Origin: Erysipelothrix sp. | Lineage (GTDB): Bacteria; Bacillota_I; Bacilli_A; Erysipelotrichales; Erysipelotrichaceae | Length of the DNA: 56,145 nt | Reading direction: 5' to 3' | Assembly: GCA_012841625.1 (NCBI GenBank) | Contig: DUUI01000055.1 | Location: forward strand, 1-56,145 | Shown here: positions 20,289-51,093 of the stretch, one piece after another | Layout of the letters: every line of letters starts with the position of its first letter | Position numbering within the stretch: position 1 is the stretch's first letter | Program-made: the position numbers and the translations under genes | The notes under the pieces: model-generated | The model's input: the letters and a program-made list of their open reading frames with translations, nothing else | The model's database searches: none | Told to the model about the DNA's origin: nothing

Positions 20289-20999
20289 CTAACCCCTCTT
20301 GTTCTTTATAAATACATGTTTAACATTTGAATTCCCAGTAGGTCTTTCATCCACTTCAAATTCATTCAAACTCTTAATTAATAATGACAATTTCATAAAA
20401 CCATAGTTACGCGGGTCAAAGTCAGGTCGCTTCTTATTCATCAGATTACCAACATCTGCTAAGAATGCATAACCACTATCATCTGCTACATCATCAATTG
20501 ATGTTCGAATAAGTTCGGTAACATTTGATCGTTTGCTTTCGCTGACTAATCTTCTCTTTGACAATTTTGGACTAATGACTGATAGATAGATGAATCTATC
20601 ACAGGCACTAATAAATGCGGTGGGCGTTTTTTCTTCACCCATCCCAATAACAAATTTACCTGCTTCTCTTAATCGGGTTGCGAGTCGAGTAAAATCTGAA
20701 TCAGAACTTACAATACAAAAACCATCTACTTGATCGCCATATAAAATATCCATGGCATCAATAATTAAAGCTGAGTCGGTTGCGTTTTTACCTGTTGTAT
20801 ACGCAAATTGTTGGACTGGCGTAATAGCATTCTCTAAGAGTTGTGTTTTCCATCCCTCAGTATTACTTTTGGTCCAGTCACCATATATTCTTTTGATGGT
20901 CGGAACCCCAAACTTGGCTAATTCCGCCATCATTTCATCTAATTTTCTAAATGAGGCATTATCGCCATCAATTAAAACTGCTAATTTCCTCTCGTTCAT
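20289..20999 (-). CDS. NYN domain protein (LabA/PIN-like)
   Basis: 236 residues. The N-terminal domain reads LAVLIDGDNASF, then KIYGDW-like and CIVSSDSDFTRLATRLRE elements with conserved Asp residues, matching NYN/DUF88 predicted ribonucleases of the PIN-like fold. The C-terminal part (about 165-235) looks like an OST-HTH/LOTUS-type domain, as in many LabA-like proteins. GGAGG lies 5 nt before the ATG at 20999; a further in-frame ATG at 21011 has no ribosome site. The start lies 32 bp inside the upstream gene. Confidence 0.85.
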   Translation of the reverse strand: MNERKLAVLIDGDNASFRKLDEMMAELAKFGVPTIKRIYGDWTKSNTEGWKTQLLENAITPVQQFAYTTGKNATDSALIIDAMDILYGDQVDGFCIVSSDSDFTRLATRLREAGKFVIGMGEEKTPTAFISACDRFIYLSVISPKLSKRRLVSESKRSNVTELIRTSIDDVADDSGYAFLADVGNLMNKKRPDFDPRNYGFMKLSLLIKSLNEFEVDERPTGNSNVKHVFIKNKRG

Positions 21000-22170
21000 G
21001 TTCACCTCCATTTTCTAAAATCATGTGGGCGGCTTCTTTAAAGACACCCAATAAACTATTGTCAAAGACTTCTAATGTCTTCAACTCATTTAAATCGTTG
21101 TTAATTACTTTTAATAACTGTGCTAATTCTAAAGCGTTATAACAATAGAATGTGCCCCCTACTATCTTATTGTTATCGACTAAAAATTCAATTCCGCCCT
21201 CTATCTCAAATCGCGATCTAAAGTAAGTAAATACTTGTACATCGTATTGATAGCGCTCCGTCACAGAATCACTCTCTACGACAGATAAGATTGGATTAAG
21301 GAAGATTGAATTAGTCACTCTATCCTGAACTGATTTATCTATTTCACTCTCACTAAAGTGTGGAGATTCAATATTGCCTTCGACAATAACAGCATCCACT
21401 TCAATTGTTTTCTCTGAGACGGGCTCAGTGATTTCAAATGCTAATTGGCTCATTGGTTTGATGGTTACTTTAGTACTTGCATCAAGGTCTTCAATGGTTT
21501 CAACTGTATACTTCTCTAATAATTCAATATTTTGACTAATTAATGTTTCTCTAACCGCATCTCTAAACATTAAATGATCAATCTGAGCAAATAAACGTCG
21601 CCCAACAACCAATGTTACTTCAGATCCAAAGCGTGCCATCATGCTTGCGATTTCTAAGCCTCTTAGTGATTGCGCATCAATTAAGACTCGTCTAAAAAGT
21701 TGACTGGTATGTAAAAACTGGTCAAAGGTAAAGACAAATGGTGATTGATACGGATTTTCTTCTGTCTTTGGTGCATTTATAATTAATTGAGAATACTCTA
21801 ATTCTGTCGTCTCACCTAAATACGTCAATTCTGCTTTCACTGGACTGATCACATTCAATCGTCCTTTTAGAATCTGAATATTTTTGGATTCTAATATTTC
21901 AACTAGAGCTTTATGATTCATATAGTCTAATTCATGTTGTTGATTAGATATATGTTCATAAAATTCTTCTGAGGCTTTAAAGTCATTATGTTCTAATTGA
22001 CCTGCAATTAAACTCGCTTGATAAAGAGCTAATACTTTTTCACTCTCAAAGCCGACATAATGTCCTTTACTTTTTAAGCTAGCTTCGTCGATTACGACGA
22101 TTTGACCATTTATTGAATCTATAATATTCAATAAATTACTATTTAATCCTACGATAATTGTTTTAAACAT
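20968..22170 (-). CDS. Degenerate pyridine-nucleotide-disulfide-oxidoreductase-like protein
   Basis: 400 residues. The overall layout resembles the FAD/NAD disulfide reductases: a Rossmann start (KTIIVGLNSNLLNII), and a second nucleotide-binding stretch RGLEIASMMARFGSEVTLVV near 170-190. A dimerisation-like C-terminal domain follows. However, both GxGxxG loops have lost their glycines and no CxxxxC redox pair is visible, so it is probably not a normal reductase. It lies between a membrane-anchored EIIB protein (8-bp overlap) and the NYN protein (32-bp overlap). A sensor or scaffold role is inference only. Confidence 0.6.
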   Translation of the reverse strand: MFKTIIVGLNSNLLNIIDSINGQIVVIDEASLKSKGHYVGFESEKVLALYQASLIAGQLEHNDFKASEEFYEHISNQQHELDYMNHKALVEILESKNIQILKGRLNVISPVKAELTYLGETTELEYSQLIINAPKTEENPYQSPFVFTFDQFLHTSQLFRRVLIDAQSLRGLEIASMMARFGSEVTLVVGRRLFAQIDHLMFRDAVRETLISQNIELLEKYTVETIEDLDASTKVTIKPMSQLAFEITEPVSEKTIEVDAVIVEGNIESPHFSESEIDKSVQDRVTNSIFLNPILSVVESDSVTERYQYDVQVFTYFRSRFEIEGGIEFLVDNNKIVGGTFYCYNALELAQLLKVINNDLNELKTLEVFDNSLLGVFKEAAHMILENGGEHEREEISSFN

Positions 22171-24815: not shown

Positions 24816-24844
24816 AAAGGAGGCTAATCATAGCCTCCTTTTTT
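24816..24844. terminator. Bidirectional terminator
   Basis: AAGGAGGCTA (24817-24826), ATCA loop, TAGCCTCCTT (24831-24840), T run on the plus strand and a shorter one on the minus strand. Shared by hxlR and the amylase operon. Confidence 0.85.
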
Positions 24845-24849
24845 ACTTA

Positions 24850-26307
24850 TTAAATGACTGTATCATCCTTAACCCAACAAGAAATGCTGCGCTTATATAC
24901 TTTGAAATTTCCATAGCCATCTTCATTAATCATAACTTTATCAGGATGATTGCCTAAGTAATCAGCAAACTCTTGTCCTGCATAGTGTTCACCAACATAC
25001 ATTGAAATCAGGGAATCCTCTTTATTGGATAGAATTGTTGCGCTCGCAAATGGATGTTCTTCATCGCCATGCCTTACCCAACCAACAACATTTGGATCAT
25101 TAAAATAATCATCTTGTTGCCCGTACGCAAAGCTCTTTCGACACAACATTAGCTTTTCAAGCACTTCTGCTTTTCCTTCTTCTGGATATTCTCCCCCAAC
25201 ACCATAGTAATCACCAAAGAAGACACATGGATAGCCTTCCTGTCTTAAAAGGATGATCCCATAGGCGAGTGGCTTAAACCATGCACCGACCCAAGAACTT
25301 AACGATTGATCAGGTTGAGAGTCATGATTATCAACAAAAGTAACTGCCATCGTCGGATTAGATTGAACCAGTGTGTTATCAAATATTTTTCGTAAGTCAT
25401 AGAGTTCATTCGCTAAACTTGCTTGATGGAAATTAAAATGTAAACCAACATCAAATAAGTCAATCTCAAAATCAGTTTGATATGTAAAGTTGCGACTCTT
25501 ATCTAAATCAGCAGTCCAATATTCACCAAAAATATAGAAACCTTCTTTTTGTTTTTCTAACGTATGCTTCACAAAGTCCCGTATAAAATAATCATTGATA
25601 TGCCTCATCGCATCGAGTCTAAAGCCATCAACCCCCGTTGTTTCAACTAACCAGTCTGAGTAATGAAAAAGTTCTTCTCTTACTTCTGGGTGTGAGTGAT
25701 TGATATCAGCAAACATCAAATAATCATAATTGCCCTTCTCACCGGATACACCTAATGACCAATCTTTATTTTCACCAAGAATTTTGTAGACTCCATTCTC
25801 ACCACTTAAATGATCATAATCAACCCCTGTAAAATGATTGAAGTTCCATTTAAATTCTGAATATTTTCCCTTACGCCCTGGAAAATCAAATCCTGTGAAG
25901 CCCTCAATATCATAAGGCTCACTGATTTCTTCCAAGCGATTGTCAGGATTTACTTTAACGACTTTAAAAACTTCACTATAATCAGCACCTGCTTTATGAT
26001 TTAAAACAATATCAGCATAAACACTGATTCCATGCTCATGCGCTGTTTCAATTAGTGTTAAAAGTTCTTCTTTCGTTCCATATTTAGTTCTTATTTGTCC
26101 TTTTTGATCAAATTCGCCTAAATCAAATAAATCATAAATTCCATACCCAACATCAAATTCAGAAGTTGCCTTAGACATTGGAGGTAACCAAATAGAAGTA
26201 AAACCGATTTCTTTGTACTTCTCTATTTCAGAAGTCATCCATTTATAGAAGTTTCCCTCAGCGCTGACATACCACTCAAAGCCTTGGAACATAATACCAT
26301 TACTCAT
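24850..26307 (-). CDS. Cytoplasmic alpha-amylase (GH13)
   Basis: 485 residues without a signal peptide. It starts MFQGFEWY, as intracellular GH13_5-type amylases do, and shows the conserved regions: DIVLNHKAG, the nucleophile Asp in GFRLDAMRH, the acid Glu in FGEYW and the transition-state Asp in FVDNHDSQ. It hydrolyses alpha-1,4-glucans, so it may mobilise internal glycogen-like stores. Last gene of the operon with ppx, ppk, barnase and barstar; it overlaps barstar by 1 bp (TAATG). Terminator at 24816-24844. Confidence 0.93.
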   Translation of the reverse strand: MSNGIMFQGFEWYVSAEGNFYKWMTSEIEKYKEIGFTSIWLPPMSKATSEFDVGYGIYDLFDLGEFDQKGQIRTKYGTKEELLTLIETAHEHGISVYADIVLNHKAGADYSEVFKVVKVNPDNRLEEISEPYDIEGFTGFDFPGRKGKYSEFKWNFNHFTGVDYDHLSGENGVYKILGENKDWSLGVSGEKGNYDYLMFADINHSHPEVREELFHYSDWLVETTGVDGFRLDAMRHINDYFIRDFVKHTLEKQKEGFYIFGEYWTADLDKSRNFTYQTDFEIDLFDVGLHFNFHQASLANELYDLRKIFDNTLVQSNPTMAVTFVDNHDSQPDQSLSSWVGAWFKPLAYGIILLRQEGYPCVFFGDYYGVGGEYPEEGKAEVLEKLMLCRKSFAYGQQDDYFNDPNVVGWVRHGDEEHPFASATILSNKEDSLISMYVGEHYAGQEFADYLGNHPDKVMINEDGYGNFKVYKRSISCWVKDDTVI

Positions 26308-26624
26308 TACACAAATATCTCACTTTCATTAAAGAGGATTACATCCTTCATTCTAAAATCAATATTCGGATTCACATGACTGGCATCATCAAACACACGA
26401 ATAATCTTTTGCCCATACTCGCCTATTTGTTCAATTAACATCTCAGGAAAGATAAGTAAAATGATCAGTGTTTCTGGCTGTTGATAGGTACTCATTAAAT
26501 CATATAAAGCATCTAAATTTCTTCCATAATAGTCTGGGAAGTTAAATCGTTCAATTAAATAATCATGAACTTGATCGCGATTAATCATCGACCGTCCATC
26601 TAATACAGTAATAATATTTTTCAT
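26307..26624 (-). CDS. Barstar family ribonuclease inhibitor
   Basis: 105 residues matching barstar: LDGRSMINRDQVHDYL, then FPDYYGRNLDALYDLM. The two aspartates of NLDALYD correspond to Asp35 and Asp39 of barstar, which fill the barnase active site. It follows the barnase homologue with a 1-bp overlap (TAATG), so inhibitor and toxin are translated together. It has no signal sequence and should protect the cytoplasm from misrouted enzyme. Confidence 0.92.
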   Translation of the reverse strand: MKNIITVLDGRSMINRDQVHDYLIERFNFPDYYGRNLDALYDLMSTYQQPETLIILLIFPEMLIEQIGEYGQKIIRVFDDASHVNPNIDFRMKDVILFNESEIFV

Positions 26625-27028
26625 TAATATAGCTCCTGGAAACTTGCATAGTGATCATCAGTATAGTAAATATCACCATCATCTGAATACACTAATCGCT
26701 TTGCGTTTCGTCCCTTTCCTTGGTAATCAATATCTGCTTCAAAATAAGTATTGTCTGGCAATAACCCTTCACGATTCATAAAGCGGTCACCACCAATACT
26801 TTTCTGATCAGTAACATCCCATAAATTTTGTTGAGACGGTTCCCAACCTAAATCATAGGCTTCACTTTTTGTAATATAGTTAGGCGGAAGCTCTTGGTAG
26901 GTGTGAATATATAAAGCAACTTCATCTTTTGATGTATATACTTCGTTGTAAATAATACCATCATTGAATGTACACCCACTTAGCAACACCAAACTAAGTA
27001 TTAATCCTATAAAAATTCTTTTTATCAT
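26624..27028 (-). CDS. Barnase-like ribonuclease, predicted lipoprotein
   Basis: 134 residues. Signal peptide with lipobox LLSGC (Cys19) followed by a barnase domain. Alignment by eye to Bacillus barnase keeps every active residue at the right spacing: Lys54 (ITKSEA), Glu97 (EADIDY), Arg107 and Arg111 (RNAKR) and His126 (DDHYASF); SIGGDRF and NREG are also conserved. Barnase itself is secreted free; here the enzyme should stay tethered outside the membrane. GGAG lies 8 nt before the ATG at 27028; an in-frame ATG at 27064 has no ribosome site. Sits between ppk and barstar. Confidence 0.92.
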   Translation of the reverse strand: MIKRIFIGLILSLVLLSGCTFNDGIIYNEVYTSKDEVALYIHTYQELPPNYITKSEAYDLGWEPSQQNLWDVTDQKSIGGDRFMNREGLLPDNTYFEADIDYQGKGRNAKRLVYSDDGDIYYTDDHYASFQELY

Positions 27029-27063: not shown

Positions 27064-29166
27064 TTATTTAAATAAGTTTAATAATCGTCTGAACCATGAT
27101 TCTTGACGAACTTCTTCGATTACTTCTATTTCCTCGACTTTAGAGAAATATCTCCTAAAGACATCCTGAGAATGAAGACGACCTTTGTTTGACAGTTGTT
27201 CATAATTTAAATCAGGCTGCATAATCCAACCCATGCTTGAATCATCAATTTCAACATCAAGAATATGATTGATTTGTTCCTTAATATTCGACTGTGTAAT
27301 CTCAATGAATGCCTCAACCCTTCGTTGTGTATTACGATTTAAAAAGTCACCCGAACCAATATAAATCTTAGCCCGATGAGCTGGTCCAAACCTAAAAATA
27401 CGACTATGCTCTAAATGCCGACCAACAATTGATTTAATAATAACATTGTCCGTATAGCCTTCAATTTGAGGAATCAGGCAACAAATACCACGAATAATTA
27501 ATTGAACTTTAACGCCTGCTTGAGAGGCTTCGATTAATTTATTCATAATTAAGATATCATTCATTGAATTTATCTTAAATGTAATTTCACCATCCCCAGT
27601 TTTTTGATGTCTTTCAATTTCATGCTCTATTTCATCAGCCACACTTAATCTAAAATGATTAGGCGCAATCCATAAAGCATTCACTTCATCAACTGTTTCA
27701 TTGATGGCTAAGGCATCAAACAAATGGTTAGCATCCTCACCCACTAAACGATTGCTCGTGATATAGGACAAATCAGTATACTGCTCCTGTGTACTCTCAT
27801 TGAAATTACCTGTTCCTACATATGTAATATATGACACTGTCCCATTCTTTAATGATGTAATTAAACAAACTTTTGAGTGGACTTTATAATCACTTAATCC
27901 ATATAAAACAGTGCAACCAGCATCCTCTAGTAATTTTGAAAAATCAATGTTTGACTGTTCATCAAAGCGAGCTCTAAGCTCCATGACAGCTACTACTTCT
28001 TTTCCTTTTTCAGCCGCATAGGCTAAAGCTGCCGCAATCCGACTTGGTGAAGCTAATCGGTAGAGTGAAATCTTAATTGAAATAACATCTGGATCATTGG
28101 CTGCTTCATGAATCAGTTGAATAAATGGTTGAGAGGAATGGTATGGGAAATGTAACAGTAAATCCTTATTTTCTAAAAAACTTAAACCACTCTTTTGAGT
28201 AAAATCAATTGGAACAACGGGTGAAACTGGTGGGTATAAATAATTAGGATAGTTTTGTCCTAATTCTTTTTTAAGCTCATGCCCAAAAGATAAATCAAGA
28301 GGAAAATGGTTTATGATAATTGACTTTTCATTGATTTCAAGTTCTTTTACTAAGTATTGTTTAAATTCATCTGATATTTCATTATTCATTTGAACACGAA
28401 CAATCCCTAAACGCTTTCTCTTTTTAAGAAGTTTCTCCATCACATCAGCAAAGTCTTCGTAATCATCCATTACCTCACCACTAACATCGACATCCGCATT
28501 TCTAGTTACACGAATTGTTACTATTTCAAGAATTTCATATTTCTTAAACATGGTCGATAAATACTGAGCGATCAACTCATTCGCAAAAAAGACATGAGTC
28601 GCTTCATTAATTGTAAATGAGTAATATGATTTCAGTCGCCCTAATGGAATAATCCCATATTTAATCTTCTTATCTTTTGACTCTATTTTTGTCATTAAAT
28701 ACGATTCATTATTATTTAGAAATGGAAAAGGATGATGTGGGTCAATAATTTGAGCACTTAATAATGGTTTTATCTCATTATTAAAGTACTTTTTGGTCAT
28801 CACTGAATCAATTTTTGACAGATTATTAAAATCAATCACATGAACATTCACTTCACGCAAGCGATTCATTAATTTCTTAATCACACCTGCAGCATCTTTT
28901 TCTTCACTATTTAACCAGTTAATCACCTTATCAATTTGTTGGGCTGCATTATCTCCCGTCTTCTCATCTATCTTATTTGGATAAACAACCATTTGGTCAC
29001 TTAAAGAGCCAATCCTAACCATAAAGAATTCATCCATATTACTACCATAAATGGACATAAAACTTAAACGCTCAAGTAATGGTGTTTCACTATCAACTGC
29101 TTGATGCAAAACTCGCTTATTAAACTGAAGCCATGATAGCTCACGATTAGTCATAATTTTTGTCAT
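27064..29166 (-). CDS. ppk1: Polyphosphate kinase 1
   Basis: 700 residues, the full family length. It makes polyphosphate reversibly from ATP. The N-terminal domain starts NRELSWLQFNKRVL, and the two HKD-like phosphotransfer histidines lie in VHSKVCLI and LEHSRIFRF. GSGDFLNRNTQRRVE is a further signature. The partner exopolyphosphatase gene is 13 bp upstream, so synthesis and breakdown of polyphosphate are co-transcribed. Confidence 0.97.
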   Translation of the reverse strand: MTKIMTNRELSWLQFNKRVLHQAVDSETPLLERLSFMSIYGSNMDEFFMVRIGSLSDQMVVYPNKIDEKTGDNAAQQIDKVINWLNSEEKDAAGVIKKLMNRLREVNVHVIDFNNLSKIDSVMTKKYFNNEIKPLLSAQIIDPHHPFPFLNNNESYLMTKIESKDKKIKYGIIPLGRLKSYYSFTINEATHVFFANELIAQYLSTMFKKYEILEIVTIRVTRNADVDVSGEVMDDYEDFADVMEKLLKKRKRLGIVRVQMNNEISDEFKQYLVKELEINEKSIIINHFPLDLSFGHELKKELGQNYPNYLYPPVSPVVPIDFTQKSGLSFLENKDLLLHFPYHSSQPFIQLIHEAANDPDVISIKISLYRLASPSRIAAALAYAAEKGKEVVAVMELRARFDEQSNIDFSKLLEDAGCTVLYGLSDYKVHSKVCLITSLKNGTVSYITYVGTGNFNESTQEQYTDLSYITSNRLVGEDANHLFDALAINETVDEVNALWIAPNHFRLSVADEIEHEIERHQKTGDGEITFKINSMNDILIMNKLIEASQAGVKVQLIIRGICCLIPQIEGYTDNVIIKSIVGRHLEHSRIFRFGPAHRAKIYIGSGDFLNRNTQRRVEAFIEITQSNIKEQINHILDVEIDDSSMGWIMQPDLNYEQLSNKGRLHSQDVFRRYFSKVEEIEVIEEVRQESWFRRLLNLFK

Positions 29167-29179
29167 TGTTTAACTCCTT

Positions 29180-30073
29180 TTATATATTTAAAACATGGCG
29201 AATTAAATACCCTTCCCTGACACCATACTTTGAAACTAAAACTTCAACGCAATTAATGTTTTGAAGAATACCAATTAAAACACACAATCCAGGTATCAAA
29301 GTATGAATCCGATCTGGAACAACTTTTAGAATTGTATCTTGTGCTTCACGTGAACCATTCCCACACTTTTCTAACATTAGTTTTAATTGCTTAAGTGTTA
29401 GTTGATTTGAATCTGAATAATCATTATCCATATATTTCTTAAGCTTAAGTAAGGCTCTTATCGTCCCACCCACACCTACAACTGAGATGTACTTATTTGT
29501 TTTAATAAGCTCTGAATCAATTAATTGTTTTGAGTATTTTTTAATTTCTTTCTGTTCATCCTTAGTTGGAATTAAGCCAGAAACAAATTGTTTATACATC
29601 GATAAAGACCCTAAAGGATATGAATCAGCTGCTAGCACAAGTTCATTCTCAAATGGAACAACCTCACAAGATCCTCCACCTATATCAACTAGCACTGCCT
29701 TAGGAACACTAAAGTCTGATGTTGCTCCTATAACACCTAGCTTTCCTTCCTCTTCACCTGAGAGTAATTGTACATCAAATCCTGTTTCATCCTTTATTCG
29801 ATCTAGCACTGATTTTGAATTATCAATGAGACGAAGGCTTGCTGTCGCAAATGGATACACATCTTTAATTCCCACAATATCAACCGTTTGTTTAAATATA
29901 GTCAAAATACGAATTAAGTTTTGAAGACCAGCCTCCAAAAGTAAACCAGATTCAATCTGAGCAGCTAAACCTGCCATCTCTTTTACTGAGAATAAAAGTT
30001 TAAACTCATCTTTATAAATTTTATAGACATTCATTCGTACAGTGTTTGATCCTATATCAATTATTCCTATCAT
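29180..30073 (-). CDS. ppx: Exopolyphosphatase (Ppx/GppA family)
   Basis: 297 residues. The ASKHA phosphatase motifs are IIDIGSNTVRMNVY at the start, LSGEEEGKLG near 105-114 and VDIGGGSCEV near 130-140. It removes phosphate from polyphosphate (or pppGpp). Length is that of the short Ppx form without the C-terminal HD domain. I start at 30073: AGAGGT lies 6 nt before this ATG, and TATAAT at 30094-30099 is upstream. Divergent to the PAP2 gene. Confidence 0.93.
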   Translation of the reverse strand: MIGIIDIGSNTVRMNVYKIYKDEFKLLFSVKEMAGLAAQIESGLLLEAGLQNLIRILTIFKQTVDIVGIKDVYPFATASLRLIDNSKSVLDRIKDETGFDVQLLSGEEEGKLGVIGATSDFSVPKAVLVDIGGGSCEVVPFENELVLAADSYPLGSLSMYKQFVSGLIPTKDEQKEIKKYSKQLIDSELIKTNKYISVVGVGGTIRALLKLKKYMDNDYSDSNQLTLKQLKLMLEKCGNGSREAQDTILKVVPDRIHTLIPGLCVLIGILQNINCVEVLVSKYGVREGYLIRHVLNI

Positions 30074-30111
30074 ATTTCTACCTCTACACATATATTATAT
30101 ACTAGATACCA

Positions 30112-49277: not shown

Positions 49278-49959
49278 TTATTCTGGTCTCTTCTTAACAA
49301 GGAATAGTCCACCAATCATTAGAACAAATCCCATTAATGATAGTAGCATATTATTAGAGCTTCCAGTCTCAGGAAGATCAGGTTTATCTACACCTTCTCC
49401 TGATGTTTCGCTGTAGGTATTTTCAAACTCTACTGCATCGACTCCAACATATTTTACTTCAGCTGTTAGTGTTCCCTCACCATCATCGGTTACGGTCACT
49501 ACAACCTCATAAACAGTTTCATCATATGTGATTCCATCTTGTTCATCATTTACTTCGCGAATTGTATAGTTACTCTCACCCGCTTCGTTATAGACTAATT
49601 CATCAAAGACTATTAGACCATCAGCGTTATTAGTTACCGTTTGGATTATTTTTCCATCAGCATCAACTAACTCAAATGTAAACTGTCCGTCTTCTAACTC
49701 TTGTCCTTTGAGTACCTTCGTCGCTTCTAGTACAACACTATCCTCGGTCACAACATATGTATTTGTAAATACTGCTAAACCATGGACATAGTCTACTATT
49801 GCCACTAAATTACCCTGACCATTATCAGTAACAGTTACGACAACTTCATAAACTGTTTCATCATAAGTAACTCCACCTTGAGAACCTTTTACTTCTCTAA
49901 TTGAATAGCTATATTCACCTATTTCATCATAGCTAATTTCACTAAAGATTACTTTGGTA
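49278..49959 (-). pseudogene. LPxTG pilin-like surface protein, 5' part lost at an IS
   Basis: Only the C-terminal 227 or so codons remain. One complete pilin isopeptide-type (FctA/Spy0128-like) domain (EATKVLKGQELEDGQFTFEL to VEFENTY) and the rear half of a preceding copy (from KVIFSEISYDEIGEYSYSI) are followed by LPETG, a hydrophobic segment and KKRPE, the sorting signal for the sortase. The frame runs into the IS end at 49960, and the far side of the IS does not supply the missing N-terminus. The GTG at 49805 is internal. So this is a broken surface protein. Confidence 0.85.
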
Positions 49960-49972
49960 TGGCAACACTTTT

Positions 49973-50767
49973 TTAGACAAAATCACTAGTTAGTCTTTGT
50001 TGGTATTCTACTGGACTCAAATATCCCAGGGTCGAATGAATACGTTTGTGATTGAACCAATAAATGTATGTTGATAATTCTTGTCTCAATTCGTCGAGAC
50101 TTTCAAATGATCGCCTCCTTACAAACTCTGTTTTAATGATCTTGAATGTTGCCTCTGCAACTGCGTTATCATAAGGAGTTCCTTTCGCACTTAAAGAACG
50201 CGAAATTCCAAATGCTTCAAGCATTTCGTCTATACTGTAATTCTTGAACTCTGAACCCCTATCGGTATGAAAATATTCTATGTTAGATAGATTTCCATCT
50301 ACTTTCGCAAATGCATCCAAAACAAGAGATGGTGTTTTCCTTTCACCACAACTTGATCCAATTATTTCTCTTGCATGAAGGTCTAAAAGTATACAAATAT
50401 AATTCCAATTGCTCCCAACTCTTACATATGTCAAATCACTGACAACAACTTGCAACTTACCTCTGTCATCGAAATCTCGGTTTACGAGATTTTCTATTTT
50501 AGATTCGTTGACTACAGATGAATGGTTCCTATACTTCTTTTTAGTATAAACAGATACCAAATCATGTTTTCTCATTATTCTTGATATCCTACGTCGCGAA
50601 GTAAAGATTCCTTTTCTTTGAAGCTCAGCTTTGATTTTACGACTACCGTATATCGAATGACTTTTATAAAAGAAATCAATAACTTCATCTTCATATTGAT
50701 CGATTTCTTTTATTTTTGGTCTGTATGAATAAATTGCGCTTCTTGAGACATTTAGATATTTGCACAT
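49973..50767 (-). CDS. IS3-family transposase OrfB (DDE integrase)
   Basis: 264 residues from the first ATG. HTH_21-type start (SHSIYGSRKIKAELQ) and an rve integrase core with all three acidic residues: Asp in VVSDLTYV, Asp in FHTDRGSEF and Glu in NAVAEATFK. The frame is open upstream into orfA and is in -1 relation to it, so the active enzyme is probably an OrfAB fusion made by frameshifting. Apparently intact. Confidence 0.93.
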   Translation of the reverse strand: MCKYLNVSRSAIYSYRPKIKEIDQYEDEVIDFFYKSHSIYGSRKIKAELQRKGIFTSRRRISRIMRKHDLVSVYTKKKYRNHSSVVNESKIENLVNRDFDDRGKLQVVVSDLTYVRVGSNWNYICILLDLHAREIIGSSCGERKTPSLVLDAFAKVDGNLSNIEYFHTDRGSEFKNYSIDEMLEAFGISRSLSAKGTPYDNAVAEATFKIIKTEFVRRRSFESLDELRQELSTYIYWFNHKRIHSTLGYLSPVEYQQRLTSDFV

Positions 50768-50808
50768 TGAAGAAATTGGATATTTATGCGAATTTTTACG
50801 AATAATTT

Positions 50809-51093
50809 CTATTTTCGTCCCATAATCAGCGCCGCTTGCTTTAAAATATCATTTTCCATCTTTAACTGTTGGTTCTCTTTTCGGAGTTTGATGAGTTCAT
50901 TTTCATCATCGCTTCGATTATCAGCGGCTTTGAATGATCCTGATGTGGTTTGTTGCTTTACCCATCGATAGACAAGCTGTTCATTCAAATCGTAGTCGCG
51001 GGCTAAGTCACCTGCAGACCTTCCTCCGTGGTACAGTTTCACGATTTGTATTTTAAATTCATCAGTAAATTTCCTACGTGTTCTCTTTGTCAT
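50809..51093 (-). CDS. IS3-family transposase OrfA
   Basis: 94 residues: an N-terminal helix-turn-helix (RRKFTDEFKIQIVKLYHGG, DYDLNEQLVYRWV) and a C-terminal leucine-zipper-like coiled coil (ELIKLRKENQQLKMENDILK). It ends CGA AAA TAG; the AAAA directly before the stop is a plausible site for the -1 shift into orfB. Confidence 0.92.
   Translation of the reverse strand: MTKRTRRKFTDEFKIQIVKLYHGGRSAGDLARDYDLNEQLVYRWVKQQTTSGSFKAADNRSDDENELIKLRKENQQLKMENDILKQAALIMGRK

What the first reader, a model, noticed from the sequence alone, without database searches (positions are those of the whole stretch)
26307..27028. Barnase tethered as a lipoprotein with its barstar, inside a polyphosphate operon
Seen: a barnase homologue with all catalytic residues at barnase spacing (Lys54, Glu97, Arg107, Arg111, His126) carries a lipobox (LSGC), and barstar follows with a 1-bp overlap. 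The pair lies between ppk and an amylase gene in one tightly packed operon that starts with ppx. Known: Bacillus barnase is secreted free and its barstar gene is elsewhere. Inference: a surface-displayed RNase for nutrient (phosphate/nucleotide) capture or for contact-dependent killing, with release of RNA phosphate linked to polyphosphate storage.
Basis: partly seen in the sequence, partly recalled or inferred. Interest (0 to 1): 0.75.

Follow-up and report, generated by a model that had tools for sequence, protein, structure and literature searches.

The report
Membrane-tethered barnase with its inhibitor
A Gram-positive bacterium carries an RNA-cutting enzyme that is probably fixed to the outside of its membrane by a lipid, next to the gene for its inhibitor; many relatives have the same tethered pair, while its place beside polyphosphate genes looks like a local accident.

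Summary
In detail: window 26624-27028 (-) encodes a barnase with every catalytic residue and a lipobox, and barstar (26307-26624) overlaps it by 1 bp.

(1) A linked barstar is the norm: it lies directly downstream in 35 of 36 barnase loci examined in the window's family, and B. licheniformis balifase has it in print.

(2) The polyphosphate link is not conserved: 26 of 35 barnase-bearing family genomes gave no ppk match (one miss is a contig end). Three relatives share the locus, and all three have opposite-strand gene(s), including a PNP-type phosphorylase, between ppk and barnase. The window's genome lacks that gene.

(3) Tethering recurs: of 36 family loci, 16 have a lipobox, 19 an N-terminal hydrophobic helix (4 with a possible cleavage site), 1 is cut.

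Best explanation: a surface RNase scavenging extracellular RNA, with cytosolic barstar as safety catch. The genome gave no PurH or PyrB match, so it probably needs outside nucleobases. Function is inferred. Contact killing is less likely, not excluded.

The parts
26624..27028 (-). barnase-type ribonuclease with lipoprotein signal peptide (lipobox LSGC, anchor Cys at residue 19)
26307..26624 (-). barstar, intracellular inhibitor, no signal peptide seen; 1-bp overlap with barnase
26972..27028 (-). codons 1-19: signal peptide through the lipobox cysteine
   Evidence: pattern match and shuffle control
27064..29166 (-). ppk (polyphosphate kinase), neighbour; adjacency to barnase not conserved
29180..30091 (-). 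ppx/gppA-type phosphatase, first gene of the same-strand run
24850..26307 (-). alpha-amylase gene, 1-bp overlap with barstar; not present at this place in the three relatives that share the locus
24816..24841 (.). G+C-rich hairpin between the convergent amylase and HxlR genes, terminator-like (listed on the + strand)

Best explanation
Shown by sequence: an intact barnase behind a lipoprotein signal peptide, with a barstar gene translated right after it. Inferred: the enzyme is exported by Sec, lipidated by Lgt and cut by LspA, and stays on the outer face of the membrane under the cell wall. There it cuts extracellular RNA into small guanosine-ended pieces that feed purine and pyrimidine salvage, because the host gave no match for PurH or PyrB. 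Barstar stays in the cytosol and blocks any barnase that folds before export. Tethering keeps the enzyme and its products with the producing cell. The neighbouring ppx-ppk and amylase genes are not part of the system.
For: Active-site and main inhibitor-contact residues: in 36 family barnases R83 and R87 36/36, K27, E73, H102 35/36 each; in 65 barstars D35 64/65, D39 62/65. Lipobox plus lgt and lspA. Anchors in family loci: 16 lipobox, 15 helix without AXA-like site, 4 helix with one, 1 cut by a contig end; the two anchor kinds change at least 5 times by starred branches, 13 by parsimony. Linked barstar 35/36 family loci and 17/18 Bacillota loci L032-L049. G000, G008 and G009 are listed without PurH match (G063 was not among the 95 matching genomes), and G000, G008, G009 and G063 without PyrB match. 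Family-wide, barnase-bearing genomes have PurH less often: 16/35 against 79/110, Fisher p=0.007. Membrane lipoprotein nuclease MnuA of Mycoplasma is a described analogue for nucleotide salvage (PMC11729948, passages).
Against: The auxotrophy association is not significant by genus (9/16 against 33/43, p=0.19) nor for PyrB (17/35 against 67/110, p=0.24), and is not corrected for genome size; 12 of 35 barnase-bearing genomes have both genes. The one 5'-nucleotidase of PF02872 type in the genome shows no signal peptide, so no surface enzyme for the next step was found. The PNP-type gene next to barnase in relatives is missing here. R59, a barstar-contact residue in barnase (recalled), is kept in only 22/36 family members. 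No expression, localisation or activity data.
Confidence: 0.55

Rival explanations
1. Surface-displayed antibacterial toxin: the tethered RNase enters neighbours on contact and barstar is immunity for kin.
For: Barnase-barstar is a toxin-immunity pair in polymorphic toxin systems, toxin gene first as here; the same review proposes that lipobox-bearing effectors of Amoebophilus stay anchored on the cell surface (PMC3482391, passages). The pair sits in unrelated neighbourhoods in other genera.
Against: No delivery or repeat domain in the 134-aa protein. One barstar in this genome, and 32 of 34 family genomes with a barstar above cut-off also have barnase, so no arrays of spare immunity genes. 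The enzyme lies under its own wall, facing two walls to reach a target (inference).
Confidence: 0.15
2. Phosphate capture coupled to polyphosphate storage.
For: Tight packing with ppx and ppk in this genome; balifase is induced by phosphate starvation (PMC5021464, passages).
Against: ppk is less common, if anything, with barnase (9/35 against 48/110, p=0.07); opposite-strand gene(s) between them in the three relatives that share the locus; in the 6 other genomes with both, they are on different contigs; PhoP-box-like matches below chance, none in the ppx upstream region, although two 2-mismatch matches lie at 26969 and 27067.
Confidence: 0.07
3. Cell-associated RNase for defence or self-control: barnase that loses its export or its barstar acts inside the cell (for example in stress, infection or envelope damage).
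For: Co-encoded inhibitor translated directly after the enzyme; membrane retention; one pair per genome in most carriers.
Against: Enzyme carries an export signal; no regulator or sensor domain is linked; no match in phage records bears on it either way.
Confidence: 0.1
4. Ordinary extracellular RNase: the anchor is only a slow-release form and most enzyme is shed, as with the free Bacillus enzymes.
For: Close sequence and fold match to barnase and binase; 4 of 36 family N-termini have an AXA-like site.
Against: Lipobox or helix without a clear cleavage site in 31 of 36 family loci.
Confidence: 0.1

Closest known systems
Barnase (B. amyloliquefaciens), binase, balifase: N1/T1-type guanyl RNases, PF00545
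   Same: Domain, fold and catalytic residues; balifase also shares an operon with its barstar ortholog
   Different: Those are described as secreted enzymes (abstract and passages); this one has a lipobox. Barnase and binase genes lack the linked inhibitor.
Simple barnase-barstar gene pairs (Zhang et al. 2012, PMC3482391)
   Same: Two-gene toxin-then-inhibitor order, no polymorphic N-terminal region (passages)
   Different: The passages seen do not discuss membrane anchors of these pairs.
MnuA, membrane lipoprotein nuclease of Mycoplasma (PMC11729948)
   Same: Surface lipoprotein nuclease in an organism needing outside nucleobases (passages): works like, by proposal
   Different: Another nuclease family (recalled: staphylococcal-nuclease type), no inhibitor gene; not a homologue.
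Aerococcus tenax pair, CP127381.1
   Same: Annotated 'ribonuclease domain-containing protein' followed by 'barstar family protein'; its N-terminus also ends in a lipobox, LAGC
   Different: Other neighbours; on a 592-kb replicon.

Membership tests
Barnase-type ribonuclease (PF00545) | Profile match above curated cut-off | tested here: met
   59.8 bits against cut-off 24
Barnase-type ribonuclease (PF00545) | Catalytic K27, E73, R83, R87, H102 | tested here: met
   K54, E97, R107, R111, H126
Barnase-type ribonuclease (PF00545) | Fold | tested here: met
   Model superposes on barnase/binase, ranks 1-20 at 0.8-1.2 A
Barnase-type ribonuclease (PF00545) | Guanyl-specific RNase activity | not testable with these tools
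   needs assay
Barstar (PF01337) | Profile match above curated cut-off | tested here: met
   62.7 bits against cut-off 23.4
Barstar (PF01337) | Asp35 and Asp39 of the inhibitory helix | tested here: met
   D38 and D42 of the window protein
Bacterial lipoprotein | Positive N-region, hydrophobic core, lipobox with Cys | tested here: met
   pattern match; 0 of 20000 shuffles
Bacterial lipoprotein | Host has Lgt and LspA | tested here: met
   PF01790 and PF01252 above cut-off
Bacterial lipoprotein | Membrane location and lipidation shown | not testable with these tools
   needs fractionation and labelling
Conserved polyphosphate operon member | ppk-barnase adjacency kept in relatives | tested here: not met
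   none of the three relatives with the shared locus has it; six others have the two genes on different contigs
Polymorphic toxin system | N-terminal trafficking domains and extra immunity genes | tested here: not met
   single domain; one barstar in the genome

The most novel reading that the evidence does not exclude
Membrane-tethered barnases with a linked barstar are a class of their own, in which staying on the cell surface is the selected trait: lipid anchor and membrane helix replace each other while tether and inhibitor are kept. The tethered enzyme acts on whatever RNA or cell touches the surface, including contact-dependent damage to neighbours lacking barstar.
Probability: 0.15. Interest if true: 0.7.

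Novelty: new variant of a known kind. Interest (0 to 1): 0.4.

Why it matters
Barnase is a textbook secreted enzyme, and the passages and listings seen here treat it as such. Repeated exchange between lipid anchor and membrane helix, with barstar kept next door, suggests that many barnases are surface enzymes. That gives a simple handle on the old question of what barnase is for: if it feeds nucleobase-requiring cells, a tethered form should help the cell that owns it.

Tried and rejected
Polyphosphate coupling: tested by ppk co-occurrence, by neighbourhoods and by a PhoP-box pattern recalled from memory; rejected. Counting notes: G074 (sub-cut-off PPK match) and G038 (50-residue barnase match) were left out of the counts; G063 counts as PPK-negative although a ppk fragment stands at its contig end.

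Mobile-element origin: no barnase match in 50,697 phage records; 4 of 72,556 plasmid records match, two of them in Proteus records longer than 4 Mb. GC of barnase (0.343) and barstar (0.314) is near that of the window (0.348). No support for recent arrival.

Surface nucleotidase partner: one PF02872 gene in the genome, no signal peptide seen by eye. Against the nutrient reading, and reported.

Anchor rule: crude, home-made (hydrophobic stretch, lipobox pattern, AXA-like triplet; recalled motifs). 85 loci went into the search, 83 gave a barnase row (L112 and L117 did not). Nine rows (L046, L082, L108, L110, L113, L114, L116, L118, L119) were left out of the tree; L049, L094 and L104 were called lipobox by eye against the script. 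The tree is a quick one with 35 of 71 inner branches open and several long branches. Linked barstar is not universal outside the near relatives: 1 of 5 Actinomycetota loci (L050-L054) and 11 of 24 rows of the phylum-wide set.

Wider flanks were fetched for 34 of the 35 other family barnase genes; G099 was seen with 1.5 kb flanks only. Many contigs end within 10 kb, so neighbourhood absence is limited by that. Printed neighbourhoods: L055-L074; the rest were checked by label list only.

Literature: 10 searches. That no paper describes lipid-anchored barnases rests on the listings in an open-access library; subscription papers are mostly missing. Papers seen as passages only: PMC5021464, PMC3482391, PMC11729948; others as listings.

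Full report
What is there. The window lies on one contig of a 1.37-Mb, 97% complete genome. Its family is probably Erysipelotrichaceae: G008, of the same family, has its barnase on a 44,821-base contig, the length of the contig of a MAG named Erysipelothrix sp.. A model without templates superposes on barnase and binase at 0.8-1.2 A for the 20 best matches. The N-terminus carries a lipobox; 0 of 20000 shuffles of the protein do, and lgt and lspA are in the genome. Barstar follows with a 1-bp overlap and has Asp35 and Asp39; Trp38 and Trp44 are Tyr, Glu76 is Asp.

Is the linked barstar unusual? No. In the 145 family genomes searched, 36 gave a barnase match; one (G038) is a short weak match and is left out. 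That leaves 36 genes in 35 genomes. Barstar lies directly downstream in 35 of 36; in the exception, G101, a barstar match lies about 6 kb away. The same holds for 17 of 18 further Bacillota loci, L032-L049, but only for 1 of 5 Actinomycetota loci and 11 of 24 rows of the phylum-wide set. In print, B. licheniformis balifase shares an operon with its barstar ortholog (PMC5021464, passages), and simple barnase-barstar pairs are called widely distributed (PMC3482391, passages).

Is the polyphosphate operon real? The packing is, the link is not conserved. Of 35 barnase genomes 9 have a PPK match, of the other 110 genomes 48 (p=0.07). G009 (same genus), G008 and G063 share the locus, with HxlR and DUF4236 genes on one side and ppk on the other. 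In all three, ppk and barnase are separated by opposite-strand gene(s), including one of the PNP_UDP_1 family (G063 by homology). The window's genome lacks that gene while the three others have it, so its loss best explains the new neighbours. None of the three has the amylase at this place. Of the 6 other genomes with both ppk and barnase, all have them on different contigs. PhoP-box-like matches are below chance (43 against 59.1); two with two mismatches lie at 26969 and 27067, none upstream of ppx.

What recurs is the tether. By a crude rule, the 36 family N-termini are 16 lipobox, 15 hydrophobic helix without an AXA-like site, 4 helix with one, 1 cut by a contig end. On a quick tree of 74 barnase domains the two kinds of anchor change at least 5 times by starred branches and 13 times by parsimony. 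Aerococcus tenax has a lipobox, Proteus mirabilis an N-terminal helix, each followed by barstar. The rule does not prove that the helix class stays uncut.

How it most likely works. Export, lipidation and retention on the outer membrane face follow from the signal and the enzymes present; that is established biology, not shown here. The most likely job is to cut extracellular RNA for nucleobase salvage: this genome gave no PurH match and no PyrB match, nor did G008 and G009 for both; G063 was not among the PurH matches and is listed without PyrB. Barnase genomes have PurH less often (16/35 against 79/110, p=0.007), but by genus this is not significant (p=0.19), nor is PyrB (p=0.24). A surface nucleotidase was not found. 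Barstar is the cytosolic safety catch, as for barnase.

Rivals. Contact toxin: same gene order as toxin-immunity pairs, and anchored lipobox effectors have been proposed elsewhere; but there is no delivery domain and one barstar, with 32 of 34 barstar genomes also having barnase. Intracellular defence or stress use and simple shedding remain open.

Novelty. Domain, inhibitor and gene order are known. Lipid or helix tethering of barnases as a recurrent trait was not found in the listings. I rate it a new variant of a known kind, interest 0.4.

Noticed in passing
L055:6230-7093, L056:11506-12327, L057:5955-6842: A PNP_UDP_1-family phosphorylase gene stands divergent from barnase in the three relatives that share the locus; the window's genome has no match. 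Purine salvage next to an RNase may be chance.
   Followed up: partly
L101, L102, L103: In another family (f14) the lipobox is followed by a repeat-like stretch before the barnase domain (looks like a Listeria-Bacteroides repeat, recalled), as if the enzyme were on a stalk.
   Followed up: no
L046:6073-6759: One open frame seems to hold two barnase domains in tandem, followed by a barstar.
   Followed up: no
L125 (Proteus mirabilis record NZ_OL790811.1): Barnase with N-terminal hydrophobic helix and a barstar overlapping its end, in a gammaproteobacterium.
   Followed up: partly
G008:C101:35255-35779: The ppk match of G008 has a TAA inside, and its ppk reads as two frames: broken gene or assembly error.
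   Followed up: no
genomes of genera g2, g3, g18, g23, g31, g35: PurH-domain matches covering only about positions 66-311 of PF01808 in frames of about 400 aa: a shortened PurH relative in part of the family.
   Followed up: no
window 49278-49805: Protein with FctA-type pilin domain and LPXTG cell-wall anchor, so this is a walled Gram-positive.
   Followed up: partly
window 49973-51093: Two frames that look like an IS3-type transposase pair (by eye).
   Followed up: no
window 20289-21011: NYN nuclease domain plus OST-HTH/LOTUS domain.
   Followed up: no
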